The position numbers were made by a program, and so were the translations under genes. Shown here in pieces: positions 1 to 63,056 of a stretch of 64,000 nucleotides of DNA (position 1 is its first letter; the number at the start of each line of letters is the position of its first letter). Origin of the DNA: Sugiyamaella lignohabitans (lineage: Eukaryota; Ascomycota; Dipodascomycetes; Dipodascales; Trichomonascaceae); the NCBI RefSeq assembly GCF_001640025.1, contig NC_031673.1:248001-312000 (forward strand), given 5' to 3'. Under the pieces are notes generated by a model that did no database searches, was not told the DNA's origin, and saw only the letters and a list, made by a program, of their open reading frames with translations.

Positions 1-1
1 C

Positions 2-62
2 TGCCTCCGGCGGCTGGGGCTCCGCCCCAGACCCCGCTGCTCCTCTCGCTTCGCTCGAGTCG
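2..62 (+). repeat. GC-hairpin arm, single, type A end
   Basis: TGCCTCCGGCGGC core, hairpin CTGGGGCTCCGCCCCAG and the type A terminus CTCTCGCTTCGCTCGAG. Type A is the common, imperfectly self-complementary end. Confidence 0.9.
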
Positions 63-409
63 ATGCTTTGGAGTCCCCTGTTCTGGGTTCTCTTCGGGGT
101 TGCAACCTCGCAATTTCAGAACTGTTGCCTAATCAATAAGCTTACTATTACCACTCTAAATAATATTATTAATAAAATAGTAATGTGAATGTGTCTATTA
201 CTATTACCATAGTAATTACTTTTTTACAACAAAAAATACAGAAATACAGGTTCTTTGGCTACTACTAGTTCTAATAATTCTGAGGGTTGTCTGACTGCTT
301 GGATTTTTCATGGATTGTGCTCTCTGTTCTTTGGCTCGCGACTTCACACAATGTCAGGAAAATCTCCGCCATCCACCATGAAGAGCTTCTAGCCGATGAC
401 CCCAATGCC

Positions 410-470
410 CGACTCGAGCGAAGCGAGAGGAGCAGCGGGGTCTGGGGCGGAGCCCCAGCCGCCGGAGGCA
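410..470 (-). repeat. GC-hairpin arm, single, 53 bp after TUF1 stop
   Basis: Type A arm on the minus strand; its TGCC end faces the TUF1 stop codon, so it is in sense orientation for that gene. Confidence 0.9.
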
Positions 471-523
471 GAGTGACACGACGAGAATACTATGTACATT
501 AGATTTATATACGGGAGAGAGAA

Positions 524-1822
524 CTACTCGATGATACGGGTGACGAGACCAGTACCGACAGTACGGCCACCCTCACGGATGTTGAATCTCTGGCCGACCT
601 CGATAGGAGTGGGGTGCACGAGCTCTCCGATCATTTCGGTGTTGTCTCCGGGGAACACTTGGTGGTCGTGTTCAATTCCCTCAGGGAAGGTCAAGGTAAC
701 AGTGACATCAGCAGACGAAACAAACATTTGAGGTCTGTAGTTAACACCGAAAGGAGAGTGACGACCACCCTCTTCCTTGGTCAAAACATAAATAGAAGAC
801 AAGAACTTGGTGTGGGCCTTAACGGTTCCGACCTTGGCAATGACCATACCACGCTTAAGATCCTCACGCTTAACACCACGCAACAAAAGTCCAGCGTTAT
901 CACCGGCTTGGGCCTTGTCAAGCTCCTTCTTAAACATCTCAATACCGGTAACAACAGTGGTAATAGCCTCTTTGTGGTGACCAACAATCTCCACTTCCTC
1001 ACCCTTGCTAAGAACACCACGCTCGACTCTACCAGTAACGACAGTACCACGACCAGGGATCGAGAAAACAGACTCAAGAGGCATCAAGAAAGCATTGTCC
1101 AAATCACGAGAAGGAGTGGGGATATACTCGTCAATACGGTCCAAAAGCTCTTCAATCTTTTGGACACCAATCTCAGGACGCTTGTCCTCAAGAGCACATA
1201 AAGCAGATCCCATAACAACAGGAGTGTTGTCACCATCAAATCCATAGGTAGTCAACAATTCACGCATTTCCATCTCGACCAACTCCAACATCTCGGGGTC
1301 GTCAATAGTATCGACCTTGTTGACGAAAACAACCACATGTTGAATACCGACTTGACGAGCCAACAACAAATGTTCACGGGTTTGAGGCATTTGTCCATCC
1401 GAAGCAGCAACTACAATAATAGCACCGTCCATACGAGCAGCACCGGAAATCATGTTCTTGATATAATCAGCGTGACCAGGACAGTCGACGTGGGCATAGT
1501 GACGGTTATCGGTTTCATATTCGACGTGAGCTGAGGTAATGGTGATACCACGAGCTCTCTCTTCAGGAGCCTTATCAATAGAAGCATAATCAAGGAAATT
1601 AGCACCTCCCTTGGATGCCAAAACCTTGGTAATAGCAGCGGTCAAAGTGGTCTTACCGTGATCGACGTGACCAATGGTACCAATGTTCAAGTGGGGCTTG
1701 GTTCTTTGGAAAGTCGAGGCCCAACGGCTGTTGATAGCAGCACGAGGAACCACCGACTTGCTAGCAGTAGAGAAAACTGTGCGGAGTGCAATTGCTCCGG
1801 GCAATCGCAAGTTACCAAACAT
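524..1822 (-). CDS. TUF1: Mitochondrial translation elongation factor Tu
   Basis: GTPase that delivers aminoacyl-tRNA to the mitochondrial ribosome. The protein is 432 aa, as usual for the family, with all GTPase motifs: GHVDHGKT (about residues 51-58), RGITIT, DCPGH (113-117) and NKVD (168-171). Domains 2 and 3 follow and end in the conserved [10 protein letters not shown]. The first ~45 residues are rich in Arg, Ser and Ala without acidic residues, as expected for a mitochondrial presequence. The open frame extends upstream only to a TTG; the ATG at 1822 is the first plausible start and gives MFGNLRLPG. No intron. A GC-hairpin arm (410-470) lies 53 bp after the stop. Identification is secure. 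Confidence 0.96.
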
Positions 1823-2008
1823 TTTTAGAGAACTGGTCCTGTAATAAAACAAGTTGCTAAACAATCCGAGCGTGAACTGTGGAAAAAATCCCGTTCCGGA
1901 TGCACAAATTTTTCACTGCCGCATAAGCGCATACATTCCTTTACCCTGCAGCCATCTCGTCCCCCCTGACTGGCTGCACTGAACGGGAAATTTCAGGGGT
2001 GGGGTTGA

Positions 2009-2068
2009 GCCTCCGGCGGCTGGGGCTACGCCCCAAACCCCTTTGCTCCTCTCGCTTCGCTCGAGTCG
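2009..2068 (+). repeat. GC-hairpin arm, decayed
   Basis: Type A arm with substitutions in the first hairpin (GGGGCTACGCCCCAAACCCC), so an older copy. Confidence 0.85.
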
Positions 2069-3358: not shown

Positions 3359-3420
3359 CGACTCGAGCGCAGCGAGAGGAGCAACCAGGGTCTGGGGCGG
3401 AGCCCCAGCCGCCGGAGGCA
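3359..3420 (-). repeat. GC-hairpin arm, single
   Basis: Intact type A arm (loop variant GCGCAGCG) about 140 bp before the 208-aa gene. Confidence 0.9.
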
Positions 3421-4189: not shown

Positions 4190-4222
4190 ATACATTTCCT
4201 GTTTTTGTGTACGTGGCCCGGC

Positions 4223-4362
4223 TGCCTCCGGCGGCTGGGGCTCCGCCCCAGACCCTGGTTGCTCCTGCTTCGCAGGAGATGGCCGGGACCGTCGACGGAA
4301 CGACTCGAGCGCAGCGAGAGGAGCAACCAGGGTCTGGGGCGGAGCCCCAGCCGCCGGAGGCA
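4223..4362. repeat. GC-hairpin inverted pair after the 208-aa gene
   Basis: Plus arm 4223-4278 (type B end CTCCTGCTTCGCAGGAG) and minus arm 4301-4362 (type A), 22-bp spacer; begins 33 bp after the stop. Confidence 0.92.
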
Positions 4363-4510: not shown

Positions 4511-5879
4511 TCATCTCCAGGCGAACCAGCCTTTGGTCGCAACGGGCGTGGCCTCGTCAGAAACTTGGCTCTTGGAATCGTTGTGCTTGGCTTCGTCGGT
4601 GGCTACAAGATCAAAGTCGTCCGACTCGAGAATGGAAGAGGGAGCAGGGGTGTCGCTGGAAACAGCAGTTTCTTCGATCTTCTTGCGCTGCTCTTCCAGC
4701 GACGACATGAGCTGCGCCAGCTGGGCGCGCTGTTCGTCGAGGTAGTCCAGTTTATCGGTTTTAGATACAAGGGTCTCGGGAATATTGAATGTCAGGGCAG
4801 ATGCTCGGCTCAACAATGACGACAGAGTACTTGGTACTGAGGATCCATACGAATAAGCTGATTCGGGGATCCGGAATTTCGAGAATATCATGTCCACATA
4901 CGAACTGGATGTTCCGCTCCTACCACCAGCACCACCACTAACACCGGTAGCTGAACTGGGATCAGAAGGTACTGGATCTGTAGTGGTAGAAGAACTGTCT
5001 TCGGTCTTAGTACCAGAACCAGCAGAAGCAGAGTCAACAGAAGAAGCTCCAGAATCGGGGCCGAAAATCAATGAGCTAATGACAGTCTTGGCCCATTTGG
5101 TCAGTCGTGTGAGATAATCAACGCCCATGGACTTGACGGTGTGATATGCGGACGCCACGATCTCGTCAATCTGCTGTTCATGGGTCCGCAGAAACGGTTG
5201 CACTTGGTTGAAATATAAATACGAGGCTCCTTGAAACTGTGGCAATACCAGCCACAAAGTGAACATGAGACGCCAAAACTCGTACAACGGAATCAGTTTC
5301 AAGAAAAGACCCACATACGCCTCGACAGTCAGCTGTACTGCTACAACCACCCAATAAATAAGCCACGGACGCAGTAACGTGATATCATCTCGTTCCAGCG
5401 CTTTATACGACGCCAGAACGGGGAATACAAATGAGGCCAGGGAGCTAGAAATCGGGTTAGATACGGATCTCGGGGGCTGAGGGGTCTCGGTGGGTGGGGG
5501 GTTCTGCCTCCGGCGGCTGGGGCTCCGCCCCAGACCCCGTGGCTCCTCTCGCTTCGCTCGAGTCGGGCGTCTACGGTCCCTGTTCATGCTGGGAAGTGGT
5601 TGAATCGACGCCATGAGCGATTCTCTACAGATAACACATGAACATGAATGAACATGATCCGACATGAATGAACATGATGCGACATGAATGAACACGATGT
5701 GACATGAATGACCATGAACGGACATGAATGCACATGAACGAACATGAATGAGCATGGACATGAATGCAAACGAACGAACATGAATGAACATGAATGAACA
5801 TGAACAGTCTCTGAAGAAGAAAAGCTAATTCCATTAGAATACTAACTCACCTTACGGATCGGAAGAGGAACCCAAGCAT
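4511..5879 (-). CDS. REEP/HVA22 (TB2/DP1) family ER membrane-shaping protein, two exons
   Basis: Exon 1 is 5851-5879 (29 nt) and exon 2 is 4511-5444; the intron 5445-5850 has donor GTGAGT and branch CTAAC, with acceptor CTAG. Splicing gives a 320-aa protein starting MLGFLFRSVSSLASFVFP, which restores the family's N-terminal FPxxASYKAL motif and removes a tandem repeat that would otherwise be translated. The hydrophobic hairpins include WLIYWVVVAVQ and FWRLMFTLWLVLPQF, typical of TB2/DP1/HVA22 proteins that curve ER tubules. The long Ser/Thr/Asp-rich tail and the length are unlike Yop1 (about 180 aa) and closer to REEP1-4 and fission yeast Yep1, which acts in ER-phagy; that assignment is inference. 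The intron carries a GC-hairpin arm and a minisatellite. Confidence 0.88.
5505..5565 (+). repeat. GC-hairpin arm in REEP-gene intron
   Basis: Intact type A arm, antisense to the gene, about 60 bp before the acceptor. Confidence 0.9.
5634..5806. repeat. Minisatellite of an AACATGAATG-like unit
   Basis: About 170 bp of imperfect tandem copies of a ~10-bp unit, ACATGAATGA with variants (ACATGATGCG, ACATGAACGA), lies entirely inside the REEP-gene intron. On the minus strand it reads as His/Ser/Cys/Val-rich spurious peptide. Confidence 0.85.
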
Positions 5880-6536: not shown

Positions 6537-6785
6537 TGCCTCCGGCGGCTGGGGCTCCGCCCCAGACCCTGGTTGCTCCTCTCGCTGCGCTCGAGTCGGG
6601 CATGGGGGTGCGGGTTGTGTGGTCTCTGGGGGAGAATTGGGGGTCTGGTGGGCCTGTTCGCGCTCTTTTTCGTCGTTTTCGCCCGCTGCACACCCACCCA
6701 GCTGGCAGCGCACGCCCCACGCCCGACTCGAGCGCAGCGAGAGGAGCAACCAGGGTCTGGGGCGGAGCCCCAGCCGCCGGAGGCA
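6537..6785. repeat. GC-hairpin inverted pair
   Basis: Arms 6537-6598 and 6724-6785, both type A with matching GCTGCGC loop variants, and a 125-bp GC-rich spacer. Confidence 0.92.
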
Positions 6786-7272: not shown

Positions 7273-7453
7273 TGCCTCCGGCGGCTGGGGCTCCGCCCCA
7301 GACCCTGGTGGCTCCTGCTTCGCAGGAGATGGCCGGGAGAGCTGGGGCCGCTGGGGTCGCTGGGGGACATGGGCTGGGCACACCCCACGCCCGACTCGAG
7401 CGCAGCGAGAGGAGCAACCAGGGTCTGGGGCGGAGCCCCAGCCGCCGGAGGCA
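7273..7453. repeat. GC-hairpin inverted pair
   Basis: Arm 7273-7328 (type B) and arm 7392-7453 (type A), upstream of the PRC1 TATA box. Confidence 0.92.
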
Positions 7454-9990: not shown

Positions 9991-10052
9991 TGCCTCCGGC
10001 GGCTGGGGCTCCGCCCCAGACCCTGGTTGCTCCTCTCGCTTCGCTCGAGTCG
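9991..10052 (+). repeat. GC-hairpin arm 50 bp after PRC1 stop
   Basis: Intact type A arm, sense orientation. Confidence 0.9.
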
Positions 10053-10086: not shown

Positions 10087-10234
10087 GGCCTCCGGCGGCT
10101 GGGGCGCTGCCCCAGACCCCGTGGCTCGCTTCGCTCGAAGCTAACACTCCCAGGACGGTTCTTCTCTGTTGTCGGGTCCAGTATCGAGCGAAGCGAGCCA
10201 CGGGTCTGGGGCAGCGCCCCAGCCGCCGGAGGCC
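10087..10234. repeat. GC-hairpin inverted pair, near-perfect
   Basis: Arms 10087-10138 and 10184-10234 share the rare loop GGGGCGCTGCCCC and a shortened terminus; they are complementary except for one deleted base. Confidence 0.92.
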
Positions 10235-10420: not shown

Positions 10421-10560
10421 TGCCTCCGGCGGCTGGGGCTCCGCCCCAGACCCTGGTTGCTCCTGCTTCGCAGGAGACTGCCGGGACCGTCGACGAAACG
10501 ACTCGAGCGAAGCGAGAGGAGCTACCAGGGTCTGGGGCGGAGCCCCAGCCGCCGGAGGCA
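10421..10560. repeat. GC-hairpin inverted pair
   Basis: Arm 10421-10476 (type B) and arm 10499-10560 (type A); the spacer closely resembles that of the 4223-4362 pair, pointing to a copy of the whole palindrome. Confidence 0.92.
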
Positions 10561-12099: not shown

Positions 12100-12160
12100 T
12101 GCCTCCGGCGGCTGGGGCTCTGCCCCAGACCCCGTGGCTCCTCTCGCTTCGCTCGAGTCG
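12100..12160 (+). repeat. GC-hairpin arm, single
   Basis: Type A arm with loop variant TCT. Confidence 0.9.
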
Positions 12161-13787: not shown

Positions 13788-13848
13788 CGACTCGAGCGAA
13801 GCGAGAGGAGCCACGGGGTCTGGGGCAGAGCCCCAGCCGCCGGAGGCA
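13788..13848 (-). repeat. GC-hairpin arm, single
   Basis: Type A arm with the AGA loop (complement of TCT). Confidence 0.9.
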
Positions 13849-14062: not shown

Positions 14063-14117
14063 TGCCTCCGGCGGCTGGGGCGCTGCCCCAGACCCCGTTG
14101 TGCTCCGCTTCGCGGAG
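14063..14117 (+). repeat. GC-hairpin arm, type D end
   Basis: Terminal hairpin is GCTCCGCTTCGCGGAGC, a perfect variant; first-hairpin loop is GCT. Confidence 0.9.
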
Positions 14118-14223
14118 CGGTTGGGATGGTGGGCGGGGGAGGGGCCAGTGGGTTCGGAGATGTGGCCTGGAGGGGGATCGCCTGCTGCCCCTGCGTCGTG
14201 GGAAGGCACCGATCGCCAGGGTC

Positions 14224-14367
14224 TGCCTCCGGCGGCTGGGGCTCCGCCCCAGACCCTGGTTGCTCCTGCTTCGCAGGAGTTTTGTACGGGGAGACCGCCG
14301 ACGCAACGACTCGAGCGCAGCGAGAGGAGCCGCGGGGTCTGGGGCGCAGCCCCAGCCGCCGGAGGCA
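14224..14367. repeat. GC-hairpin inverted pair after TPD3
   Basis: Arm 14224-14279 (type B) and arm 14307-14367 (type A, loop GCA); ends 81 bp from the TPD3 stop. Confidence 0.92.
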
Positions 14368-14448: not shown

Positions 14449-16682
14449 TTATTTTTCCAGGAGAGGTTTGGCGAGGACGTCGATTTCTTCGAGGCTTTTG
14501 TTGGCGAAGTAGCGCACGTCGACGTCCGAGTCTCCAGTGAGCTTTTCTAGACGGGGGATGATTGTTTCGGTGATGATTTGTTTGGCCAGGGGAGACACTG
14601 GTTTGTTGGCCGTGGCAGCGGTGGACTCGGACGTTCCAGTGGAAGGTTCAGTGGTGGAAGATGCCGAGTCGGTCTTGGCAGCAGCAGGAGAAGCAGGTCC
14701 GGTGGTGGTGGCAGAGTCCTGCTCGTCACCACCGTCAGTCCAGGTCAAACAGGTCTCGGCAAGCACTTTAAACGATTTGGCAATGTTGAACCGGATGTTG
14801 GGAATGGCATCGTCTGTCAGGTTGATGATGAATGGCAGGATCGAGTCAGTGATGGCCGCTTGGTCCATGACGGGAATCAGCGTCGTAATTGCAAACAACG
14901 CAGTCAGTCGGTACAAATAATTCGAGTTCTCGGCCACGGCAATCACGTTTTGAATGATTTCATCTTTAGCCCAGTCGACTCCAAACACTTCAGTTAGTTT
15001 ACGCAGATTCAGAGTAGCAGCTTCTCGGATCGAGAAAACACTGTCCCATAACCACGTCATACACAGAGGACCCAGCTCTTTATCGAAAAACGAGACTCCC
15101 AATTGCTCGGCCAACAATGGAATATACTCGATAATAGCCAGTCGTACTCTCCATTGCTTGTCCTTTGCCAGCTCGCTAATGGCAGGTAAAAGCGATTTCG
15201 ACAGCAGTTCAATGCCAATCACATCATTCACAATCTTGAGTTTCGAAATAATGTTCAGTCTTACATCGGGGAACTCGTCCTTTAGCATCTGTAAAAATGT
15301 AGGTAATAAGTATTGAGTAGTTTTTTCCTTCTCCAATAAAGGTGCCAAACGACTGATTTCACTAGCAAGCGCGGCTCGTACATGCTGAGACGAGTCTTCG
15401 GCCAAAAGCTCGACATTAGGAATGATTTCCGAAATAATTGCCGCCAGAGGAATTAGACTACAGAACCCGGGGATCTGTTTCGAAATAGCAGTTCGAACCT
15501 CGGCTTCCGAATCCTTCATGAGCTTGACAAATGAAGGAATAAACTTCTCGCGCAACTCACTGCCGTCCAAACTTCGCGCCAATCGTTCATATCTATCAGC
15601 AGCCATGTATCTCACTCTCCAGCTCTTGTCATTAAACAAATCTAAAGTCAATCCAATGAGCTCGGAATTATATTTAGTAATCGACTGCTTTTTCAGCGAC
15701 TCCGCAATGGCAATCAAAACGTCCACTGACAACAACCTTACTGAGTCCTGATCATCAGTGATTTGCGAAATGAACATTGTATGAAGAGTCGAGTTTTCGT
15801 CGAAATCCAGTTCGGGCAGTTCGCCAATGATTTTAGGCAGACTAGTGGCTGCTGCTCTACGAACCATGGGAGCCTCATCCTGAGTCAAGTCCTTATAAAG
15901 GACTAATAAATCATTGCGTTCTGTACCCTCGAGCTTGCTAATAGCTGCTGCATATAAACCAGTAGCCGATACCCGGCTTGTGAACCAGTCGGTGGATGAC
16001 AATCTGGTGATCAGAGGCAGGAAATACTCCTTGACCTGGCTGGTGGAAAACGCCTGGCAAATCAAGTTCAAAGACTCGACCGCCTTATCACGCACCACTG
16101 GCTCCTCTGCTCCCGACAGCGCTTCTAAAGCGGGAATCAGCACATGTGCATTATCAGGGCCTCCCACGTACGGAATAAACCCGCCCAACTCCTCGGCCAA
16201 AACCGTCAAAACCTCGTCTTCGTCCTCCTGCGTCACCTCCTCTAAAAACGGAACCAGCTCGGTCCTAGTCCTCTCCTTGCCCAGTGCAAGTGAAATGGTC
16301 GACAGACGTCTCATGGCATTGAGTCTGAAAGTCACGTCATCATGCTGCTCCTGTTAGTGTTCTGTTTCTCTGGCGAATTCGCGGGTGGGGGGTGTGCCTC
16401 CGGCGGCTGGGGCTCCGCCCCAGACCCTGGTTGCTCCTCTCGCTTCGCTCGAGTCGGGCGTGGGGAGAAGGGACAGTTCTGGGGTGGTGGACGTGTCTCC
16501 TGGATCCCCACGCCCGACTCGAGCGAAGCGAGAGGAGCAACCAGGGTCTGGGGCGGAGCCCCAGCCGCCGGAGGCACACCTGCCCCCCAGCTGTGAACAC
16601 TTACTTTGAGCTCGTCGAGGAGCAGAGCCAGGGGATACAGCTCATCGGTTGTAGCCGGCGAGTCTACCGATGCTTGGTTCAT
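14449..16682 (-). CDS. TPD3: PP2A scaffold (A/PR65) subunit, two exons
   Basis: Structural subunit of protein phosphatase 2A, built of about 15 HEAT repeats. Exon 1 is 16605-16682 and exon 2 is 14449-16344; intron 16345-16604 has a GTAAGT donor and branch CTAAC, with GAGCAG as acceptor. Splicing joins LYPLALLLDELK to HDDVTFRLNAMRRLSTI, matching the first repeat of PR65 without a gap. Using the AG directly behind the branch would add two residues. The predicted protein is 657 aa. A Ser/Thr/Ala-rich insertion near the C-terminus (roughly 45 residues) interrupts the last repeats and explains the excess over human PR65 (589 aa). The intron contains an inverted pair of GC hairpins, and another pair ends 81 bp beyond the stop. 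Confidence 0.95.
16395..16576. repeat. GC-hairpin inverted pair in TPD3 intron
   Basis: Arms 16395-16456 and 16515-16576, both type A and fully complementary by eye; they make up most of the 260-nt intron. Confidence 0.93.
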
Positions 16683-17377
16683 TTTCGTGTGGGTTGTGTG
16701 CCTGACAGATCACGGGTTGTGGTGTTGTGGATTGGTTGATTGTAGTTGATGAAACCGTCAGAAAAGTGCAATCGGGGTGGTTCCAGTAATTGAAATGATT
16801 CGTGAGATGTCCAAAATCAACCGTCTGTCGTTAGTCAAGAACTGGTACGGGTCAATTGATTGGTCTTGTGATTGGATGGGTCGTCCTCGGTCGGTGTCTG
16901 ACGTTGTGGAAATGCGGTCAAAAGTCGTGATACCGGAATCGCGATCTGGTTTGTATCTGCTGGTCGTGGAAATCGTCCTATAGTAGCAGTACCAGCACCC
17001 GTTTGATGAGTTTTGACTTCTTTTTTCGTTTGCCTGTTTCCGTCAGCCACTTGAGAAGATTGTTTGTTGCTCAGTCACAATCGCGCGCTTTGTAGTACAA
17101 CAAACCTCGGAAATCTATCAATCGTTTTTAAAGGTTGTGCCAAAGAAGTTCACGAGCTGCTCACACTAACAATTCCCTGTTCTTGTGCCGTTTCGGTGTA
17201 CAATATCGTATGACGTCTATCAAGTGAGAATGCGATAACTGCGATGCTTGTTTTTGTTGGTTGGCGTTTACTGCACTGCTAAAACAACAAGCATCCATCC
17301 ACTGACCCTTTTTTCTGCTCCTACACGGCTCACCCGCCGCGGGATGTGCGGCGCGGTGCTCAGGGGTTGGTGGGTCG

Positions 17378-17437
17378 GCCTCCGGCGGCTGGGGCTCCGC
17401 CCCAGACCCCGTGGCTCCTCTCGCTTCGCTCGAGTCG
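17378..17437 (+). repeat. GC-hairpin arm, single
   Basis: Type A arm beginning GGCC rather than TGCC. Confidence 0.9.
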
Positions 17438-21716: not shown

Positions 21717-21719
21717 GAC

Positions 21720-44501: not shown

Positions 44502-44743
44502 TTTGAATAGCAATAAATCAGTTTCAAGCTTATTAACCTTCTAAAATATTGTCCCAGGATGTCAGTCTAAATCTGTAATTTTTCACATGCGGCTTGACAA
44601 AAAATTCTTATCAGTGCTTCGATAGAGGTAAGGAACTGCACCTGCATCACCCCCCTGAACTTCTCTTATGGGACTAATTCTCCCTTCAGACCCTCTGACC
44701 TCACTTTACCAGTCCCAAAACCCCATGCTGAGGCCCCTAAGCC

Positions 44744-44783
44744 CGACTCAAGCCCGGCGAGAGAAGCCCAGCCGCTGGAGGCA
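44744..44783 (-). repeat. GC-hairpin relic
   Basis: CGACTCAAGCCCGGCGAGAG followed by CCCAGCCGCTGGAGGCA; the first hairpin is half deleted. Confidence 0.75.
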
Positions 44784-47288: not shown

Positions 47289-48806
47289 AGTGTAACTCAA
47301 TGAATATCCAATCGAAATAGTATCAAAACAAACTATTGAACCTCTAATAAAGTACCGAGATCAAGTCGCGATCTCTGTGAACAGTCTCCAGGCTGGCAAT
47401 TCCAATATTACAACCAAAGCAAGAATCCAGGAATCCTATTCACCACTAATATACTCGAATTAGATGGCTAAGAAATCAAGACAAGATAAACTTGGTCACC
47501 TATATTTGATACAACAGTAGGTGCACTTGTTATCCCGAGTCCACTTGTGTATATATATTCTTATCTCGATTATCGCTAATCAGTACTCGATCAGATGGAT
47601 ATAGTCACTTGACAGTAATCAATGATGCAATTAATTGTCGGAAGGAAAAACCCGTCGATTATCGGCTCTTTAAATTGCAATATACAATCCACCTCGAAAT
47701 CAATCAACAACACAAAACTTTCCGTGTATTTGTTTGCGCCAGACGAATGTTAAGTTTCAGTGCACAAGCTGTTATCAACCACCGTCAATCGCCCTCCTCA
47801 CTAATAACATTACACGGCGCTCCTCGACAGCACGAAATTAACCTCTGATCGCGCGCCGTGTCACCCTTGCCTACTCGGACTCCGGTCACATGACAATTAA
47901 CCATCTCTACCCGGGTCCTTTCCGTGGGGGTTCCTCGGAAACCGGCTCCAACATGACCCGACCCTGTGCTAATCTTACGCAATTGCTCTTAGATTAATCC
48001 TTCCTTCTTTGTTGGTTGCTTAACTTTGGTACTGTAGGGGTGGTTCTGCCTCCGGCGGCTGGGGCTCCGCCCCAGACCCCGCTGCTCCTCTCGCTTCGCT
48101 CGAGTCGTTATTTGGGGGAGCCAGGACTTGTCGGGAGAAAGACATTGCCTCGATTAAAGAATTCTTTTCTCGATGAAATTCTTTGGTTTACTTGATATTT
48201 TCCTTCTCTAATACCACGAAGTCACTGAGCATCATGTTCAGCCCGCCAAGTGCTATTCGACTCAAAATTCAGGAGCAACCCTTACAATCTTTTCAACAGA
48301 AAATCCGAAAACAATTCTCCAATTAATACCAGAGAACCAAGAGTTTAGCCAAAGATTTCGGCTGCTAAAGTAGTTGACTAAGTAGAGGTGCTATGCATGT
48401 TCTGTCGATCTCTTGTGGACCCTGCATCTGGAAGCCAACAGCTTTCCTAACAAATTTAACAAATCCTTACCAATATTACATAATCTAGTGGATATCCAGG
48501 TCAAAATCGACATTAGCGTACCTATGTTTTGTCTACAGCTGACAAAGGAGACTCTTGCCAACGACTTGGTCCACCACCCTGGAATATGGTCAGATCTGGA
48601 TCATATACCTCGTATGAACCTCCGACAATTCCGATGTATAGTACGGGTTATCAAAAGCCTTTTTCTGAAATCAATTGCTCTTCACTTCCACTAAATTTAA
48701 TATTGGGGTTCAGGGAACAAAATGTCTAATTGAATTCGTATAAGATCTTATGTTTGAATGTTTCATCATGCATTAATATAATATAAATAAAGTCGTAACA
48801 GTTGGT
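47289..48806. other. Intergenic 1.5 kb between the AVT-type gene and RPC25
   Basis: Contains one hairpin arm (48047) and short coding-like fragments near 48411-48730 that I could not support as a gene. Confidence 0.5.
48047..48107 (+). repeat. GC-hairpin arm, single
   Basis: Intact type A arm. Confidence 0.9.
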
Positions 48807-49534
48807 CTATTCCCACCAGGATACAAGACCCATACCGTCAGTTTGGCAGGATCCAATAATAGAATAAGGTGGCACTTGGTTGTGGACCTGTTCTTCTTCT
48901 TCAACGCCTGGTCTTTTTGGTGGTTGGTTACTGAATATCTCTTGCTCAACTCTGAATCGAATTTTCTCGTTGGTATCAATATACAATTCGCTTTCTTCAG
49001 TCTTCCACAACCAAGCTTGTTCTCTGGGAACAAATGAACACTCTTCAAAGAGCAATGACTTTGGAATATGAATATCGTCGAAGAACTCCATCTTGACATT
49101 GATGCCCTCCTCGGTACAAGAAGATACCCATCCCACGAGAATCTCGCCCACAAACGGTCTAAAAACAATCATTCTAAACACAGCTGCCCAAAGTTAGCAC
49201 CAAATCAAACCAAACAAGCACTCATGACCCCTCGCAACCGACTCGAGCGCAGCGAGAGGAGCAGTGGGGTCTGGGGCCCAGCCGCCGGAGGCACACCCCC
49301 ACCACCCAAAAAACACAACCACTTACTCTTAACAAATACAGCACCGTCACCAGGTCGTATTAACCCGTCTCCTAGAGACTCAATGTCATATAAACAGATG
49401 CATAACCCGACGTTTGGGATGACGCGATTAGCGTACTTGCGGTTGATCTCCTGGCTCAGTGCCTCGGGAGTCTGCTTGTCGAACTCAGACGGTTCCAGCC
49501 TGATAGTATCAGATATCTTCGTCAGAACAAACAT
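48807..49534 (-). CDS. RPC25: RNA polymerase III subunit C25 (Rpc25), two exons
   Basis: Exon 1 is 49327-49534, the intron is 49184-49326 (donor GTAAGT, branch CTAAC, acceptor CAG), and exon 2 is 48807-49183; 194 aa. It is the stalk subunit of Pol III, paralogue of Rpb7. Exon 1 gives MFVLTKISDTIRLEPSEFD and IPNVGLCICLYDIESL; exon 2 gives VFRMIVFRPFVGEILVGWV, the S1-like domain, and the signature end GSCQTDGMGLVSWWE, which is nearly invariant in Rpc25. The joint reads KTVFR. A GC-hairpin arm with an internal deletion (49239-49293) sits in the intron. Confidence 0.95.
49239..49293 (-). repeat. GC-hairpin arm with deletion, in RPC25 intron
   Basis: Type A end; the first hairpin is reduced to CTGGGGCCCAG, an 8-bp internal loss that still leaves a short palindrome. 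Confidence 0.88.
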
Positions 49535-49734: not shown

Positions 49735-49795
49735 TGCCTCCGGCGGCTGGGGCTCCGCCCCAGACCCCACTGCTCCTCTCGCTGCGCTCGAGTCG
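49735..49795 (+). repeat. GC-hairpin arm, single
   Basis: Intact type A arm about 200 bp upstream of RPC25. Confidence 0.9.
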
Positions 49796-50285: not shown

Positions 50286-50346
50286 CGACTCGAGCGAAGC
50301 GAGAGGAGCAGCGGGGTCTGGGGCGGAGCCCCAGCCGCCGGAGGCA
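50286..50346 (-). repeat. GC-hairpin arm, single
   Basis: Intact type A arm about 350 bp upstream of SDH1. Confidence 0.9.
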
Positions 50347-50691: not shown

Positions 50692-53162
50692 ATGCTGAGT
50701 GCTCTTAAGAGAACTCCATTGGTAAGTGATTGCGAGCAGGTGCAATTCGCGTGGTCCGAGTCCCTGCCAACTGCACTACAATCTGGAATTGGTGGAATTA
50801 AGTCTGTCCAGAACTGGAATTTGTGAATTTTATGACCCGGACATTTCTCCGTAAAAGCAGTTTATGAACCAAGACGGCATTCAGCCTTGTTTTCAGTCAT
50901 ATCCGGCCGTAATATGTCAAGTCATGTCAAGCCATGTTCCCCCATGGTCTGGTTCATATCCAGCTGGCCCCAATTTGCGGATTCGACTTTTCACAGCCGA
51001 GAGTCAGTAGTAATTGACAATGGCATATTCCATCCATTTCATTCGTAACCGATATACTAACGAGATGCCAGAAAAATGGCGCTGCCAGATCGTTCCACAC
51101 TTCACGCAGTGTCAGCAAGATCTTTTCCCAGCAGGTAAGTCTCTCACGGATGGCAGTGTGCCTCCGGCGGCTGGGGCTCTGCCCCAGACCCCGTGGTGCT
51201 CGCTTCGCGAGCTTCCGGGACCGTAGACGCACTACTCGAGCGAAGCGAGAGTAGCCACGGGGTCTGGGGCAGAGCCCCAGCCGCCGGAGGCAGGCCCCAG
51301 GCCCCCAGAACGAATAAGAACTAACCCGTATGAAGCCCATCCGAGCCCAGGAGGCCAGTAAGCATGTCAGTTCGAAGTATCCAGTGATTGACCACGAGTA
51401 CGACGCCATTGTGGTTGGTGCCGGTGGTGCAGGTCTGCGTGCTGCTTTCGGTTTGGCCGAGGCTGGTTTCAATACAGCTTGTATTTCCAAGTTGTTTCCT
51501 ACTCGTTCGCACACAGTAGCTGCTCAAGGTGGTATTAATGCTGCTCTTGGTAACATGCACCCTGATAACTGGAAGTGGCACATGTACGACACAGTCAAGG
51601 GATCCGATTGGTTGGGTGACCAAGATGCTATTCACTATATGACTAAGGAGGCACCTCAATCCATTATCGAGTTGGAACACTATGGTGTGCCATTCTCTCG
51701 TAACGATGAGGGCCGTATCTACCAACGTGCTTTTGGTGGTCAATCCAAGGAGTTCGGTAAGGGTGGTCAAGCATACCGTACTTGTGCCGTTGCTGATAGA
51801 ACCGGTCATGCTTTATTACATTCCTTATATGGACAGTCTTTGCGACACAATACTAATTTCTTCATTGAGTTCTTTGCCATGGATTTGCTGATGCAGGATG
51901 GCGAGTGTGTGGGTGTCATGGCCTATAACCAGGAAGATGGTACTCTACATAGATTCCGTGCTCACAAGACCGTTTTGGCCACTGGTGGATACGGAAGAGC
52001 ATATTTCTCATGTACCTCTGCTCACACATGTACAGGAGATGGTCTTGCTATGGTTACCAGAGCTGGTTTGCCATTACAAGATTTGGAGTTTGTTCAATTC
52101 CATCCTACTGGTATTTATGGATCAGGATGTTTGATTACTGAAGGATCTCGTGGTGAAGGTGGTTACTTGTTGAACAAGAACGGTGAACGTTTCATGGAGA
52201 GATATGCTCCTACTGCCAAGGATTTGGCTTCTCGTGACGTTGTTTCTCGTTCCATGACTTTGGAAATCAGAGAGGGCCGTGGTGTTGGTCCTGAAAATGA
52301 CCACATCTACTTGCAATTGTCTCACTTGCCTGCCGAGGTGTTGAAGGAGAGATTGCCTGGTATTTCTGAGACTGCTGCTATTTTCGCAGGTGTCGATGTC
52401 ACCAAGGAACCTATTCCTGTTCTTCCTACCGTCCACTATAACATGGGTGGTATTCCTACCAAGTGGACCGGTGAGGCTCTTACTGTGGATGAGAACGGAA
52501 ACGACAAGGTTGTTCCTGGTCTGTATGCATGTGGTGAAGCTGCCTGTGTTTCCGTTCACGGAGCCAACAGATTGGGTGCCAACTCATTGCTTGATTTGGT
52601 TGTATTTGGTCGTGCTGTTGCCCACACTATCCGTGACCAATTGACTCCTGGTACTCCTCTTAAACCCGTTTCTGCTGATATTGGTCATGAGTCTATTGCC
52701 AACCTTGACAAGGTCCGTACTGCTACTGGATCCAAGTCCACTGCCGAGATCCGTCTTAATATGCAAAAGGTCATGCAAACCGATGTGTCTGTATTCAGAA
52801 CTCAAGAGTCTCTTGAAGATGGTGTCAGACGTATTACCGAGGTTGACAAGTCTATTGTTGACTTGGGTACCACTGACCGTTCTATGATCTGGAACAGTGA
52901 CCTTGTCGAGTCTCTTGAATTACAGAACCTGTTGACCTGTGCCATGCAAACTGCTTACTCTGCTGTTGCTCGTAAGGAGTCTCGTGGTGCTCATGCCCGT
53001 GAAGATTATCCCGAACGTGACGACGTCAACTGGATGAAGCACACTCTTTCATGGCAAGACAAGCCCGGTGACCCCGTCAAGCTCGGCTACAGAAACGTCA
53101 TCTCCACCACACTCGACGAGGCCGAGTGCCCTTCAGTGCCTCCTGCCAAGCGTGTCTATTAA
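50692..53162 (+). CDS. SDH1: Succinate dehydrogenase flavoprotein subunit, three exons
   Basis: FAD subunit of complex II. Exon 1 is 50692-50721 ([10 protein letters not shown]), exon 2 is 51072-51134 ([20 protein letters not shown] plus one Gln), and exon 3 runs to 53162. Exons 1-2 form the mitochondrial presequence. The exon 3 acceptor is either AAG (exon from 51336) or CAG (exon from 51351), both in frame, giving 639 or 634 aa. The mature protein shows the FAD-binding motif [20 protein letters not shown], the His of SHTVAAQGG that carries covalent FAD, and the active-site region [19 protein letters not shown]. Intron 2 (51135 onward) contains an inverted GC-hairpin pair; intron 1 is 350 nt. 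A single arm starts 71 bp after the stop. Confidence 0.95.
51159..51292. repeat. GC-hairpin inverted pair in SDH1 intron 2
   Basis: Arm 51159-51212 (type C) and arm 51231-51292 (type A variant CTCTCGCTTCGCTCGAG with CTACTC), 18-bp spacer. Confidence 0.92.
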
Positions 53163-53233: not shown

Positions 53234-53287
53234 TGCCTCCGGCGGCTGGGGCTCCGCCCCAGACCCTGGTTGTGCTCGCTTCGCGAG
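53234..53287 (+). repeat. GC-hairpin arm 71 bp after SDH1 stop
   Basis: Intact type C arm, sense orientation. Confidence 0.9.
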
Positions 53288-53514
53288 CCGCTGGGTCTTT
53301 GCTGGTTCGGTTTTTGTGGCAGTGCTGTTGTAGGCAGAGTCGAAGAAGACTGAATTGTGATATCTGTCCATTGAATAGAGGTGACCCGGGCTCAGGGGGA
53401 ATCGGGACTCATGCGGCGTAAGTCGTGACGCGGGTCGAAATGTTCGTGAAGATGCGCTTGGTAGATCACTCTTCATTATATTATTCACAGTTTAGGTTTG
53501 GAGTCAAGTTCAAG

Positions 53515-54193: not shown

Positions 54194-55012
54194 ATGAAAG
54201 ATCGAGATCAATGCTGTTTAACCTGTGATTCTACAGTTTCTATTTCTGGTTTCGAATTGGATTCAATCCCTGGTCCAGTTACGCTTGAAGCACGCATACA
54301 CAGGAAGCGGGCACGTACTCACTGATCCCTTCGATTAAAAGCATTAGGACTCCCAAACCCAAATACTCAAGGTGTATATGACTAATTGTTGAAGGATTTG
54401 GTGGAGTTGGTGCGGTAATTGGTGGAGTAATTGGTGGAGGATTGGTATTCTTATGCTCCAAAAAGCATCCTATCGATGTCAATAGCGATGCCGCTGTATT
54501 TATTTATTATTTAATTTATTCATAGATTTCACAGGGGATCTTTGCTGGGTCCAAATATAACGAGGAAGTGTTTCTTGAACGCTTTTGGCAGTTTCTGGGG
54601 ATTCTACTATGCTAACCTCCCATTGATCCTGCTATTCACGAATCTTAAGTTGTTCTGGGACCTCCTGAGTCCGACTCGAGCGCAGCGAGAGGAGCAGCGG
54701 GGTCTGGGGCGGAGCCCCAGCCGCCGGAGGCAGTACCCCACCAGAAAATAAACCTCGAGTACAAAAATTGAAACCCCAGGGGTCGTCAGGTATAGAGGCA
54801 GGAGGAAGAGTGCATAAGTGCACATGCGATGGTGCAGATATGCGGCGCCACGGAGCGGTGTGGTTTTATTCGTAATCGAAGACTACTGTAGAAGCAGCAT
54901 CAACCACCAACACAGACAACCAGTACAAAGAAATTGGCCAGGCAATCAGAATAGACTGAAATATAAATCGAATTCCAGGTGCCAGTAACAGAAATAGAAT
55001 AGCCAAATAGCA
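54194..55012. other. PSF1-RPT1 intergenic region
   Basis: One hairpin arm at 54672; otherwise no ORF or RNA gene seen. Confidence 0.55.
54672..54732 (-). repeat. GC-hairpin arm, single
   Basis: Intact type A arm about 280 bp upstream of RPT1. Confidence 0.9.
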
Positions 55013-56374: not shown

Positions 56375-56426
56375 TGCCTCCGGCGGCTGGGGCTCTGCCC
56401 CAGACCCCGTAGCTCGCTTCGCTCGA
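56375..56426 (+). repeat. GC-hairpin arm 45 bp after RPT1 stop
   Basis: Loop TCT, short terminus GCTCGCTTCGCTCGA; sense orientation. Confidence 0.9.
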
Positions 56427-56725
56427 TTGAGAGGGGCCAGCAAATGATTTAAATATAGGGATAATGAATTTAAATGAGTTAAAAATGGGTTGGTGGATTT
56501 GGGCGAAAATGCGTGGTATGCTGCGGGTAAGGCTTGCAGATATTAAAAATACAACATATAAACTTATAATGTGGCATACAGCTTCATAGTACCAATATAT
56601 AGGCACTTTCGAGTGCTTTGTTCCAAAATATGAGAAAAAATATGATTAAACAGCTACGAAAAGAATAAAACGGATTGTGAAAAGTTTCCTCGAATATTAC
56701 TTGCAGACTCACAAATCAAGAAATC

Positions 56726-56797: not shown

Positions 56798-56800
56798 TCT

Positions 56801-60591: not shown

Positions 60592-60717
60592 GACCAGTTC
60601 ATTATTTCATGGTCATGCCCAATTCACAGTTTGTAATAATAGTATTTCATATAGCTGTTGGTCATTAGTCATTAATTGTTATTTATATTTCCCATAGATA
60701 TCATAATATCATTGATT

Positions 60718-61872
60718 TTAGGAATCTGATTCCCCCGAATCGTCATAGTCGACTAGAGATGGCTTGGCATCAGGAGTTGAGATTTCTCTACTTTTGGCCT
60801 TCTCCTGAACAGGCGTCCTGTTCTCAGTCCTGATCCGTTTCGGCCTAGACGGGCTCATGTCTATAGAAAATGATTCAGTGGAATGTCTTACGATATTTCT
60901 TATGGTGCTCACGCTTAAAGGAACGTCTCTTTGATTCTGCTTTTGATCGTTGAATATTGTGCTGTGGAGTCTATTATTAAGTTCTGTCTTTGGTTGTGAT
61001 CCACCAAACTCGCGAGAATTCGCTTCTATGTCGTCTTGTACGCTGGCTTCTACCAGGGGTATTGCCAAGGATAGCTTATCTTTTATCCTAGACTCTTCCT
61101 CTTTCTTCTTTTTAATCTCATTTTTCTCATTCTAGTATTACCGGGTTAGCATATAGTCCATACAACAATGTAATTATACCATTCATTTTTCATACTTACT
61201 CGAAAGCTCTCACGCAATTTTTGTGACTGAGTATATGGGTCATCCCATTGCTTTAAATTCGCCTTGTATATATCAAGTAAAGCCTTATTATCCTTGTTTT
61301 GTTTGGTCTGGATTTCATTCTCTTTCTCTATGGTTGAAAATGGATTGGAATCTGAGGGGACTGTTTCATGTAGTTCTGCTTGTTTTGCTAGCTCATCTTC
61401 AGCAGTTCTTCTTGCTCCCTGATCAATTTTATAATCGGTGTTTTGTGGATCAGTAACTATTACAATAATTCCACCACAAAGATGACATTTGAACTGGAAG
61501 CTCCAAATGGGCGTAGTATGATAATTCCCTATTTTCTTCTTTTCCGCATTATACCGCGTACCTTGAGCTAATCGTTTATCACATGATAAACAGTAGGCAT
61601 TATAAGGGAGCTCGAACCTAACTACCAGAATCCCTTGATCTAACTTTCGTGCTCTTTTGCCGAGTGCATGTTGATTAGCCAACTGATTCAGGTTCTGTTT
61701 TCCATCTATTTCTGTTAGAACTTTTCCAAAAGAGATTTAAAATTAGATACTAAAGCAACTTACCATAATCTGGAGGATAGTATTTGTTATAGCCTGCAAT
61801 TTCTCGTTAGTTAGAGTTCTTATTAGTCCTTTCATTCAATACTCCACATCTCAACCCGAGCTTACCTTGCAT
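60718..61872 (-). CDS. CWC16/CCDC130 (Yju2-family) splicing factor, four exons
   Basis: Exons 61866-61872 (7 nt), 61764-61793 (30 nt), 61200-61705 and 60718-61131; 318 aa. Introns of 72, 58 and 68 nt have GTAAGC/GTAAGT donors and CTAAC branches. The spliced N-terminus MQGYNKYYPPDYDGKQ leads to LGKRARKLDQGILVVRFELP and the zinc-binding pairs YCLSC and KCHLC, then IWSFQFKCHLCGG. The last joint gives LRESFRNEKNEIKKKKEEES and SLAIPLVEA, matching CCDC130. Fission yeast Saf4 and human CCDC130 act at the catalytic steps of splicing; whether this is Saf4-like or Yju2-like is best judged CCDC130/Saf4-like. The C-terminus is Ser/Arg/Lys-rich. Confidence 0.93.
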
Positions 61873-62233
61873 TATTGTACCCTTAAACCGCACACCGCAC
61901 GCTTAAATTGTATCAAAACTCTACACCTATGGTATCATATACGTAGATAAAATCCCAAATTGTTAGCTAAATTGCCAATGGTGATGGCCACTGGTGTGAA
62001 AAGAGATATCTAAAACATCAATGTCATCTGTATGATAGCCGATCATTTCATATGCAACAGCCGTTCAACACCTTGTGATTTCGTCAAGGGTCCAGAATGA
62101 CAATCAATGCATATGCATAATCTGCAAGGCCAACACGTAGACTAATTAATAACATAATAAATGCAATCTTCTCAGCACACTTTTCAAATTTAACTCTAAA
62201 TATTAATATATTACAGGATCAATTTTAACTTGA

Positions 62234-62750
62234 ATGAATATGTCAAATAATAGCGATCATAAACGAGATACTCCTGCAGGAAAGCCACGGAGCTTTCAAT
62301 CAGAGGGCAGAGTAATAGGTACCACCAAAACCTTTACAAAGAGTGAAAAACAGGATAACATTTCACAAGAGAGCAAATCAAAAAAGCTCCGAGCAAGTTG
62401 AAAAACCTGGTATTAAAGTGAAAATTAAACCTAATGACCGTCTACGCAAAGCATTCAGGACCAGGGGCCATGTCTTAGGAACATCAGAAATTGTCGACCC
62501 ACTAAACTCAGAGCTTGAATCCAAATGCGAGTCCGACTATTATTCGCAGTCCGAGTCCGACTTTGACTCCGAGTTTGAATCTGATCTTGAGTTTGATGTG
62601 CTATATGGCCGACGAATTGAATTTCAGTCGAGGGTGAGTGACAATGTTCCAGCACAGCCTACAAGTGTGAATATTATTGACTTCTTAACCAACCCACTTC
62701 CTAGTATACCTCCCAACCCCCAAAATAATAGGCATCTCCACCAAAGCTAG
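62234..62750 (+). pseudogene. Frameshifted hypothetical ORF
   Basis: An ORF from the ATG at 62234 (MNMSNNSDHKRDTPAGKP) stops at 62399-62401 after 55 codons. A second frame, shifted by +1, is open from 62343 to 62750 and carries an acidic repeat (SESDFDSEFESDLEFD) and INIIDFLTNPLP-like sequence. The two overlap at an A6 run near 62389-62394; one A fewer there would join them into about 170 codons. It may be a pseudogene, a sequence error or a programmed frameshift. Family not recognised. No intron signals explain it. Confidence 0.45.
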
Positions 62751-62901
62751 CTCAGATCTGGACCTGATTTTTCTTACTCCTCGGTATTTTTCCCAAAGCT
62801 GCAGTCGCAATGAACCTGTTTCTTCTACTTAATTTTTAAGCCACTCAATCAGTTTCTTATTTTATCCTATACCTACGATCAAAAACATCTGAATGGCGAG
62901 A

Positions 62902-63056
62902 TGCCTCCGGCGGCTGGGGCTCCGCCCCAGACCCTGGTTGTGCTCGCTTCGCGAGCGACGTCACCCACTGAGCGAAATTGAGGCTGTTGTTCGTCCGGAG
63001 CGCTCGCGAAGCGAGCACAACCAGGGTCTGGGGCGGAGCCCCAGCCGCCGGAGGCA
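62902..63056. repeat. GC-hairpin inverted pair, perfect arms
   Basis: Arm 62902-62956 and arm 63002-63056, both type C and fully complementary by eye, 45-bp spacer. Confidence 0.93.

What the first reader, a model, noticed from the sequence alone, without database searches (positions are those of the whole stretch)
1..63056. Dense family of short GC-rich hairpin elements across a nuclear yeast region
About 60 arms of 51-62 bp (31 plus, 29 minus, counted by eye) share TGCCTCCGGCGGC, the hairpin CTGGGGC-loop-GCCCCAG, ACCC and a second terminal hairpin. They encode nothing plausible, show no transposase and are far GC-richer than their surroundings. They recall the GC clusters of yeast mitochondrial DNA and bacterial REP/MITE elements, but here they interrupt introns and intergenic DNA of ordinary nuclear genes about once per kb. 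I do not recognise them as a described family.
Basis: partly seen in the sequence, partly recalled or inferred. Interest (0 to 1): 0.88.

Follow-up and report, generated by a model that had tools for sequence, protein, structure and literature searches.

The report
Bacteria-like hairpin repeats in yeast nucleus
A yeast nuclear genome is peppered with thousands of short DNA hairpins whose core sequence also occurs as dispersed repeats in unrelated bacteria, which suggests that a protein-free repeat crossed between the domains of life.

Summary
The window holds 60 arms (31 plus, 29 minus); the genome (15.9 Mb, 4 contigs) holds 5,807 exact copies of the 13-base head and 5,473 of the head-plus-stem core, reversed controls 0. 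About half the arms form heads-outward doublets; the canonical unit is ~140 bp with two different ends, and 1,065 such junctions occur genome-wide. Arms are 94-97% identical between units, spacers 53%. No target-site duplication was seen, and no RAYT or Tc1/mariner-type transposase was found. Arms avoid long ORFs and concentrate in GC-rich domains.

Unexpectedly, the core is not yeast-specific. It occurs as dispersed, mostly heads-out repeats in scattered bacteria. Members of the Solidesulfovibrio family carry a double-hairpin form; one copy shares 35 consecutive bases with a yeast arm. The exact pattern is absent from 298 other Pseudomonadota sampled.

Best reading: a REP-like, hairpin-forming, protein-free repeat kept uniform by recombination-coupled copying, probably of bacterial origin. 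It fails tested features of REPINs, MITEs and SINEs. How it spreads is inferred, not shown.

The parts
4223..4362 (.). doublet, A-end + spacer + inverted B-end (140 bp)
7273..7453 (.). doublet A/B (181 bp)
10087..10234 (.). doublet D/D (148 bp)
10421..10560 (.). doublet A/B (140 bp)
14224..14367 (.). doublet A/B (144 bp)
16395..16576 (.). doublet B/B (182 bp), with GGGCGTGGGG inverted inside
18527..18665 (.). doublet B/A (139 bp)
20284..20443 (.). doublet A/B (160 bp)
22542..22681 (.). doublet B/A (140 bp)
24809..24944 (.). doublet B/A (136 bp)
29144..29283 (.). doublet B/A (140 bp), right head with 2 changes
29907..30095 (.). doublet C/A (189 bp)
31392..31533 (.). doublet A/B (142 bp)
31906..32045 (.). 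doublet B/A (140 bp)
51159..51292 (.). doublet C/B-like (134 bp)
62902..63056 (.). doublet C/C (155 bp)
2..62 (+). single arm, B-type
410..470 (-). single arm, B-type; 53 bp beyond the stop of the EF-Tu ORF 524-1822; 35 bases from its second base (469 down to 435) equal a bacterial copy (L162)
2008..2068 (+). single arm, B-type
3359..3420 (-). single arm, B-type
5505..5565 (+). single arm, B-type, inside intron 1 of a YOP1-like gene
6537..6598 (+). arm, B-type; heads-out with 6724-6785, 249 bp overall
6724..6785 (-). arm, B-type; partner of 6537
9991..10052 (+). single arm, B-type, 50 bp beyond the stop of ORF 8171-9940
12100..12160 (+). single arm, B-type
13788..13848 (-). single arm, B-type
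14063..14119 (+). single arm, C-type stem variant GCTCCGC-TTC-GCGGAGC
17377..17437 (+). single arm, B-type
18880..18941 (-). single arm, B-type
21720..21773 (+). single arm, D-type, 3 bp beyond the stop of ORF 20490-21716
23117..23169 (-). single arm, C-type, shortened central stem
29832..29886 (+). single arm, C-type, decayed
30123..30178 (-). single arm, A-type
34383..34437 (-). single arm, decayed
34816..34871 (-). single arm, A-type
43139..43193 (+). single arm, A-type, 60 bp beyond the stop of the Raptor-like ORF 39332-43078
44735..44783 (-). single arm, strongly decayed
48047..48107 (+). single arm, B-type
49238..49293 (-). single arm, B-type, with a deletion in the central stem
49735..49795 (+). 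single arm, B-type
50286..50346 (-). single arm, B-type
53234..53289 (+). single arm, C-type, 71 bp beyond the stop of ORF 51330-53162
54672..54732 (-). single arm, B-type
56375..56428 (+). single arm, D-type, 45 bp beyond the stop of the proteasome-subunit ORF 55013-56329

Best explanation
A family of short, protein-free, hairpin-forming dispersed repeats that works like bacterial REP/BIME elements, amplified in a yeast nucleus. SHOWN: an arm is a nearly fixed ~32-base core (head GCC-TCC-GGC, stem CTGGGGC-loop-GCCCCAG, then ACCC) followed by an exchangeable second hairpin (types A, B, C, D). Arms occur singly or as heads-outward doublets; the commonest unit is A-end + ~22-bp spacer + B-end (~140 bp). 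Flanks are unrelated and no target-site duplication is seen. Spacers have drifted while arms stay nearly identical; linkers and second hairpins are shuffled between arms. The core is shared with dispersed repeats of scattered bacteria. INFERRED: the hairpins expose single-stranded DNA or stall forks; at such places repair or replication copies arm sequence from another arm. This mostly overwrites existing arms, keeping them uniform and mosaic, and now and then seeds a new site without a target duplication. Selection removes insertions from coding and promoter DNA, so copies remain in introns, between genes and beyond stop codons, above all in GC-rich, presumably recombination-active domains. 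INFERRED: the founding copy came from a bacterium; the closest copies seen are in the family of Solidesulfovibrio.
For: Real and genome-wide. Doublets: heads-out neighbours under 200 bp 37, heads-in 1; A-B 20 of 37 pairs, A-A 0; 1,065 A-B junctions genome-wide, control 0. Arms conserved beyond the rest: A arm 96.5%, B arm 93.7%, spacer 53% pairwise in 18 units; 100 spacers, 99 distinct, 77.5% mean identity to a consensus against 57.2% when shuffled. Mosaicism. No TSD of 3 bp or more in 37 doublets. ORF avoidance and GC association: 7 of 139 arms overlap a long ORF at 47% coverage; arms per 10 kb against GC3 rho 0.76, against masked inter-ORF GC rho 0.81, 26 pieces. Arm head within 100 bp beyond the stop of 26 of 79 ORFs, before the start of 6 of 79. 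Folded form: second-hairpin stems vary in compensated ways. Bacterial sharing: with 0 of 298 other Pseudomonadota.
Against: No new insertion, empty site, excision or conversion event was seen; mobility rests on dispersal alone. Intactness is only slightly higher in arm-dense pieces (57 of 67 against 44 of 62 perfect cores, p = 0.058). Partner arms of a doublet do not share variants (16 against 14.2 and 7 against 6.2 expected), so copying between the two arms of one unit is not seen. Five LINE-like copies carry no arm inside, so no nested insertion could be dated. Predicted single-strand folding is moderate (DNA z -1.5 and -1.0 for the two strands of a B arm, -2.75 and -2.80 for an A arm; RNA -2.1 and -1.6 for a B arm) with no clear strand preference. 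Only the core is shared with bacteria: the whole 62-base arm has no match in plasmids or phages, and neither the exact 33-base yeast core nor the B hairpin occurs in IMG/VR. The Myxococcota MAG has heads-in pairs (2 of 2).
Confidence: 0.45

Rival explanations
1. Trans-mobilised single-stranded element (REPIN-like): a HUH or other hairpin-cutting enzyme of the yeast recognises the two unlike ends of the A-B unit and moves it through single-stranded DNA; single arms are remnants.
For: Two different ends sharing one core, heads-out hairpins, variable spacer and no TSD match the REPIN layout described in PMC3116915 (abstract and passages).
Against: Y1_Tnp (PF01797) had no match in the yeast and in 8 of 9 bacteria searched, while it rang in 5 of 14 controls. 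Single arms are as intact as doublet arms: 47 of 63 against 57 of 73 perfect. Copies moved as a unit should share spacers, yet 99 of 100 spacers are distinct. No gene family recurs clearly beside bacterial arms.
Confidence: 0.2
2. Selected gene-end or chromatin element: arms are kept because they act near 3' ends (termination, RNA stability, insulation).
For: Heads lie within 100 bp beyond the stop of 26 of 79 ORFs; with ORFs of 100 aa or more, doublets number 7 in 6.1 kb of convergent gaps, 7 in 25.9 kb of tandem and 3 in 23.9 kb of divergent gaps (8 further doublets fell inside such ORFs and 7 in gaps over 2.5 kb). Inverted repeats gather at poly(A) sites in S. cerevisiae (PMC6420913, abstract).
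Against: Arms within 200 bp of a stop are no more intact than others (28 of 36 against 76 of 100); single arms in tandem gaps show no orientation bias (4 against 7); 5 of 26 ten-kb pieces, all with long ORFs, have no arm.
Confidence: 0.17
3. An ordinary MITE of an unrecognised DDE transposase: ~60-bp inverted ends with an internal spacer.
For: Long inverted ends, ~140 bp length, no coding capacity.
Against: No TSD (0 of 37 at 3 bp or more; longest direct repeat in 20-bp flanks 3.81 against 3.77 expected); no DDE_3 match (rang in 3 of 14 controls); about half the arms are single; arms far more conserved than spacers. hAT and Helitron searches are uninformative because no control rang.
Confidence: 0.08
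4. The likeness to bacteria is convergence: the same structure and host machinery (for example a shared repair activity) drive unrelated repeats to one sequence. This concerns origin and can hold together with any of the mechanisms above.
For: Within bacteria the head stays fixed while stems change in a compensated way, as if the sequence itself were recognised; E. coli intrastrand-triplex repeats show a comparable hairpin-plus-third-run plan (PMC4666352).
Against: About 24 independent bases agree (my count), and 35 consecutive bases in one copy; nothing in the fold seems to require GCCTCCGGCGG; the exact motif is rare in sampled bacteria (0 of 298; 0 of 99).
Confidence: 0.3

Closest known systems
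Dispersed GCCTCCGGCGG-headed hairpins of Solidesulfovibrio and its family, Acetobacteraceae, Polymorphobacter and others (found here; no name known to me)
   Same: Same head, stem position and AGACC continuation; heads-out pairs in the alphaproteobacteria; a double-hairpin arm in the Solidesulfovibrio family; triloops TCC, TCT, GCT and GTT seen in both
   Different: 1 to 281 exact copies per genome in nine bacteria against 5,473; other second hairpins; A/G-rich rather than G-rich upstream in alphaproteobacteria
REPINs / REP-BIME with RAYT
   Same: Short inverted doublets of conserved arms around a variable spacer, non-coding DNA
   Different: No GTAG or CGTC tag, no RAYT found, single arms not decayed, eukaryotic nucleus
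E. coli intrastrand triplex motif (PMC4666352; related to box C repeats)
   Same: Hairpin followed by a third run: GGGG-loop-CCCC-AGA-CCCC gives the mirror repeat GCCCCAGACCCCG; several E. coli copies also lie as close opposite-strand pairs (positions in the paper's Table 1)
   Different: Different sequence; triplex formation of the yeast arm is untested
Mitochondrial GC clusters and double-hairpin elements of fungi; Volvox palindromes
   Same: GC-rich single or double hairpins in intergenic and intron DNA (recall for the fungal ones); Volvox palindromes also reach the nucleus (PMC2670323, abstract and passages)
   Different: Those spread in organelles, and that paper suggests the Volvox nuclear copies are inert; here the nuclear population is huge and largely intact
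MITE / foldback elements
   Same: Inverted ends, no coding capacity
   Different: No TSD, constant arms with diverged spacer, many single arms

Membership tests
REPIN / RAYT-associated REP | inverted doublet of conserved arms, spacer less conserved | tested here: met
REPIN / RAYT-associated REP | doublet arms more conserved than single arms | tested here: not met
   57 of 73 against 47 of 63 perfect, p = 0.69
REPIN / RAYT-associated REP | RAYT (Y1_Tnp) in the genome | tested here: not met
   PF01797 0 matches in the yeast, six frames without introns; rang in 5 of 14 controls
REPIN / RAYT-associated REP | GTAG or CGTC tag at the foot of the palindrome | tested here: not met
   arm sequence; tags from PMC8266576 (passages) and the title of PMC3733652 (listing)
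MITE of a DDE transposase | terminal inverted repeats | tested here: met
MITE of a DDE transposase | target-site duplication | tested here: not met
   0 of 37 doublets at 3 bp or more
MITE of a DDE transposase | related transposase in the genome | tested here: inconclusive
   DDE_3 no match; hAT and Helitron searches had no ringing control; other DDE families not searched
SINE / LINE-mobilised RNA | target-site duplication | tested here: not met
   (doublets only)
SINE / LINE-mobilised RNA | pol III promoter boxes, known small-RNA origin or LINE-like tail | tested here: inconclusive
   no Rfam family on the arms at gathering score; no arm inside five LINE-like copies; pol III boxes and tails not scanned for
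mitochondrial GC cluster / double-hairpin element | residence and spread in mitochondrial DNA | not testable with these tools
   no mitochondrial contig is held
intrastrand triplex motif | hairpin plus a third run able to form triads | tested here: met
   by sequence only: GGGG, CCCC, CCC(C) in order; the first three C of the third run at 92-93% of arms. The stem-length rules of PMC4666352 were not applied
intrastrand triplex motif | triplex formed in solution | not testable with these tools
   needs CD or NMR
GCCTCCGGCGG-headed bacterial repeat | fixed head, stem, GACC, in several copies | tested here: met
GCCTCCGGCGG-headed bacterial repeat | descent from a common ancestor | tested here: inconclusive
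   35 bases shared with one bacterial copy; no intermediate or dated transfer

The most novel reading that the evidence does not exclude
A protein-free repeat crossed from bacteria into a yeast nucleus and multiplied there to more than 5,400 copies without bringing any enzyme, using machinery that bacteria and yeast share; it would be a cross-domain selfish DNA element defined by structure alone.
Probability: 0.4. Interest if true: 0.95.

Novelty: new variant of a known kind. Interest (0 to 1): 0.82.

Why it matters
REP-like repeats are regarded as bacterial, and their spread is usually tied to RAYT enzymes. Here the same kind of repeat, with the same core sequence as a bacterial family, fills a eukaryotic nucleus, and no RAYT is found. 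It makes two questions testable: whether a DNA hairpin can be selfish without a dedicated enzyme, and whether such repeats pass between domains. It also gives a natural system of thousands of DNA hairpins, many at gene ends, in a culturable kind of yeast.

Tried and rejected
Chance or composition: rejected (reversed controls 0 in every genome; two made-up patterns of similar make-up gave 0 stretches in IMG/VR against 7 for the real one). Known RNA family: only a tRNA in the window. Autonomous partner: PF01797 and PF13358 no match; PF14214 and PF05699 uninformative. Nested insertion in LINE-like copies to obtain an empty site: none. REPIN singlet decay: not met. Gene-end function by conservation: not met. 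Arm-to-arm copying within a doublet: not seen. A gene family beside bacterial arms: 279 ORFs from 120 loci, largest cluster 5, spread over four loci. The 24-of-26 'head towards the gene' bias beyond stops I discount, because heads-out doublets produce it by geometry and single arms show none. The idea that one strand folds better, from GNA triloops (59 of 59 B hairpins on the minus strand; stability of GNA mini-hairpins from PMC4686876 passages), is left as a lead: predicted energies are about equal on both strands, the central stem has other loops too (TCT and GCT in 36 of 121 read arms), and in bacteria GNA/GNNA loops lie on the plus strand (49 of 94 Acetobacteraceae, 14 of 72 Sphingomonadales and other alphaproteobacteria) or are absent. 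Sequence words in the literature: 70 papers; the 20 listed look unrelated by title.

Caveats on counts: arm searches allow 3-4 mismatches in the 18-base head, so badly decayed arms are missed. Of the 144 arms, three are false: two palindrome self-matches (window 7312, L019:1815) and a chance match in a reading frame (L016:5636); the last is also one of the 7 of 139 ORF overlaps, and all three are among the 70 'single arms'. The two self-matches stand in for real doublets, so 37 heads-out pairs stands. ORFs are mechanical, without introns, and some are spurious in GC-rich DNA. The sample is the window plus pieces of contig C1 only; searches also read the five LINE loci (one arm, L159). Bacterial loci were fetched by a pattern that demands the TGGGG...CCCCA stem, so stem frequencies there are biased. 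The spacers come from units with exact ends on contig C1 only (100 of 1,065); I chose their consensus by eye. In bacteria, arm centres fall in ORFs of 200 aa or more in 37 of 94 (Acetobacteraceae, coverage 86%) and 33 of 72 (other alphaproteobacteria, 82%) but in 12 of 16 in IMG/VR contigs (78%), so depletion is not seen there.

Full report
OBSERVATION. The window is G000:C4:248001-312000 of a 15,932,016-base genome in four contigs. The head TGCCTCCGGCGGC is found 62 times with up to two mismatches, against 0.85 expected; 60 of these are arms, 31 plus and 29 minus. Genome-wide there are 2,918 + 2,889 exact heads and 2,728 + 2,745 copies of head plus stem plus GACC; the reversed patterns give none. 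In a 264-kb sample (the window and twenty 10-kb pieces of C1) the 29 fixed core bases are perfect in 104 places, with 28 at 1-6 mismatches; the peak at 7-9 mismatches I read as the palindrome matching itself out of register.

HOST. Window genes are ordinary nuclear fungal genes (EF-Tu, Raptor, DBR1, LTV1, CCDC47, carboxypeptidase). Named relatives of two window proteins include Trichomonascus and, for one, Yarrowia. Four contigs of 5.93, 4.95, 2.77 and 2.28 Mb resemble the karyotype of Sugiyamaella novakii; the same paper says S. lignohabitans also has four chromosomes (PMC12232646, passages). I think the host is Sugiyamaella lignohabitans, but that rests on recall and fit. Its genome paper (DOI recalled) is not held, so I cannot exclude that it mentions these repeats.

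ANATOMY. Reading an arm from its head: GCC-TCC-GGC mini-hairpin; CTGGGGC-loop-GCCCCAG; ACCC; a variable linker; a second hairpin. The leading T is 85% conserved; the next 32 positions are 88-100% conserved apart from two loop positions. Second hairpins: B 59, A 31, C 15, D-like 6, others 32 of 143 arms. Perfect second-hairpin stems occur in compensated variants such as CTCCTGC/GCAGGAG, GCTCGC/GCGAGC, GCTCCGC/GCGGAGC, GTTCCGC/GCGGAAC and GCCAGC/GCTGGC, the last three once each, which points to a folded form. B stems contain two mismatches that on the minus strand are adjacent G.A pairs (by eye), and their three-base loop reads GNA in 59 of 59. GNA loops give unusually stable DNA mini-hairpins (PMC4686876, passages). 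The core also reads G-run, C-run, C-run, with the mirror repeat GCCCCAGACCCCG, the plan of an intrastrand triplex (compare PMC4666352: abstract, passages and one section). Whether any of these forms in the cell is unknown; predicted folding is only moderately better than shuffled sequence.

DOUBLETS. Close neighbours are heads-out 37 times, heads-in once. A-B pairs are 20 of 37, A-A none. Aligned A-containing units (22) begin at TGCC and end at GGCA, with few exceptions, and flanks do not align. In 18 canonical units pairwise identity is 96.5% (A arm), 53% (spacer), 93.7% (B arm) and about 30% in flanks. Genome-wide 1,065 exact A-spacer-B junctions exist; of the 100 listed spacers 99 differ, with a mean of 77.5% identity to one consensus; 26 of the 100 score below 70%, close to the shuffled mean of 57%. 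So most units share an ancestor, most copies are old enough for spacers to drift, and yet the arms stay uniform. Linker variants combine freely with second-hairpin types. Together this suggests copying of arm sequence between sites. Imperfect cores mostly show C-to-T and G-to-A changes, 28 of 52, as in ordinary decay.

INSERTION SITES. 37 doublets show no target duplication. Upstream of heads 41-59% of the bases at -12 to -4 are G; since this lies outside both ends of a doublet in mirror fashion it is either a worn outer part of the arm or a preference; I cannot tell which. 7 of 139 arms overlap an ORF of 200 aa or more although such ORFs cover 47%; of the seven, one is the intron case and one a false arm. 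Arm density follows GC3 of neighbouring ORFs (rho 0.76, p 7e-6, 26 pieces) and masked inter-ORF GC (rho 0.81). GC3 is not made by insertions, so arms gather or survive in GC-rich domains; recombination is my inference. Heads lie within 100 bp beyond stops more than before starts (26 against 6 of 79 ORFs), and doublets are densest in convergent gaps. Arms near stops are not more intact.

BACTERIAL RELATIVES. Exact copies per genome in nine bacteria: 33, 12, 47, 43, 44, 281, 56, 228 and 1, reversed controls 0. Close pairs are heads-out against heads-in 25:0, 15:0, 6:0 and 1:0 in Acetobacteraceae, Sphingomonadales/other alphaproteobacteria, IMG/VR and Solidesulfovibrio loci, most spans 80-128 bp; the Myxococcota MAG is the exception with 0:2. 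The stem changes in step (T-A 191, C-G 26, others 4 of 221) while the head stays. The motif is patchy: 0 of 298 other Pseudomonadota and 0 of 99 other members of the Roseococcus family, but 16 of 58 other members of the Solidesulfovibrio family (Desulfovibrionaceae by recall), five of them with 7 to 155 copies and eleven with 1 to 3. In one of these (G318) the arms read are double hairpins: head, stem with a three-base loop, GACCCC, second hairpin. One copy in another (G312, L162) shares GCCTCCGGCGGCTGGGGCTCCGCCCCAGACCCCGC, 35 bases, with the yeast arm at window 469-435. The whole yeast arm has no match in the plasmid or phage collections, and the exact yeast core none in IMG/VR.

MECHANISM. 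No RAYT was found (with ringing controls), no Tc1/mariner-type DDE; hAT and Helitron remain open and other families were not searched. LINE-like reverse transcriptases exist (13 RVT_1 matches), but five copies carry no arm inside. The REPIN model (PMC3116915, passages) predicts decayed single arms, and copies moved as a unit should share spacers; neither is seen. I therefore favour copying through repair or replication at hairpins, without a dedicated enzyme, at 0.45. The steps of copying are inferred throughout.

ORIGIN. By my count about 24 independent positions agree between yeast and bacteria, in a motif that is rare in sampled bacteria; I put shared descent by transfer at about 0.6-0.7, and bacteria as the source because the bacterial forms are more varied and more widely spread. 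Convergence under a shared recognition factor remains possible (0.3). Wood and insect-gut habitats would offer contact; that is recall plus remarks in PMC13130702 (passages).

PRINT. Searches for the sequence and for such repeats in yeasts or eukaryotes listed no paper that I recognised as describing this family; listings were read by title and abstract start, a handful of papers in passages, and the library lacks most subscription papers.

NOVELTY. As a kind, short dispersed hairpin repeats are known. New here, as far as I could search, are the nuclear setting and scale, the two-ended unit with module exchange, and the bacterial core. I call it a new variant of a known kind.

Noticed in passing
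L157-L161 (yeast LINE-like loci): Five RVT_1-bearing copies of about 5.4 kb, 96-99.8% identical, spread over all four contigs, with a ~170-bp internal direct duplication and no arm inside.
   Followed up: partly
window 1-60000 and L009-L028: ORF GC3 varies from 0.35 to 0.54 between 10-kb pieces and tracks arm density, an isochore-like pattern in a yeast.
   Followed up: partly
window 5630-5810: A microsatellite-like run of ACATGAATGA units in the same YOP1-like intron that holds the arm at 5505, seen by eye.
   Followed up: no
L120, L147, L072, L123, L143: In some alphaproteobacteria the bare head GCCTCCGGCGG is repeated in tandem upstream of a full arm; some G318 stretches (L172, L173, L176) do the same.
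   Followed up: no
L149-L155: IMG/VR contigs with heads-out bacterial pairs, arms not depleted from long ORFs there: either prophages with host repeats or misassigned host DNA.
   Followed up: no
window 16395-16576 and many single B arms: Single B arms are often followed by GGGCGTGGGG or similar; in the 16395 doublet this is inverted inside, hinting at a second, longer B-B unit.
   Followed up: partly
L011:6528-6684: An arm with a ~20-bp internal tandem duplication, a possible trace of slippage or template switching.
   Followed up: no
L013:8233-8775: Tandem duplication of a ~200-bp stretch that includes an arm, 80% identical.
   Followed up: no
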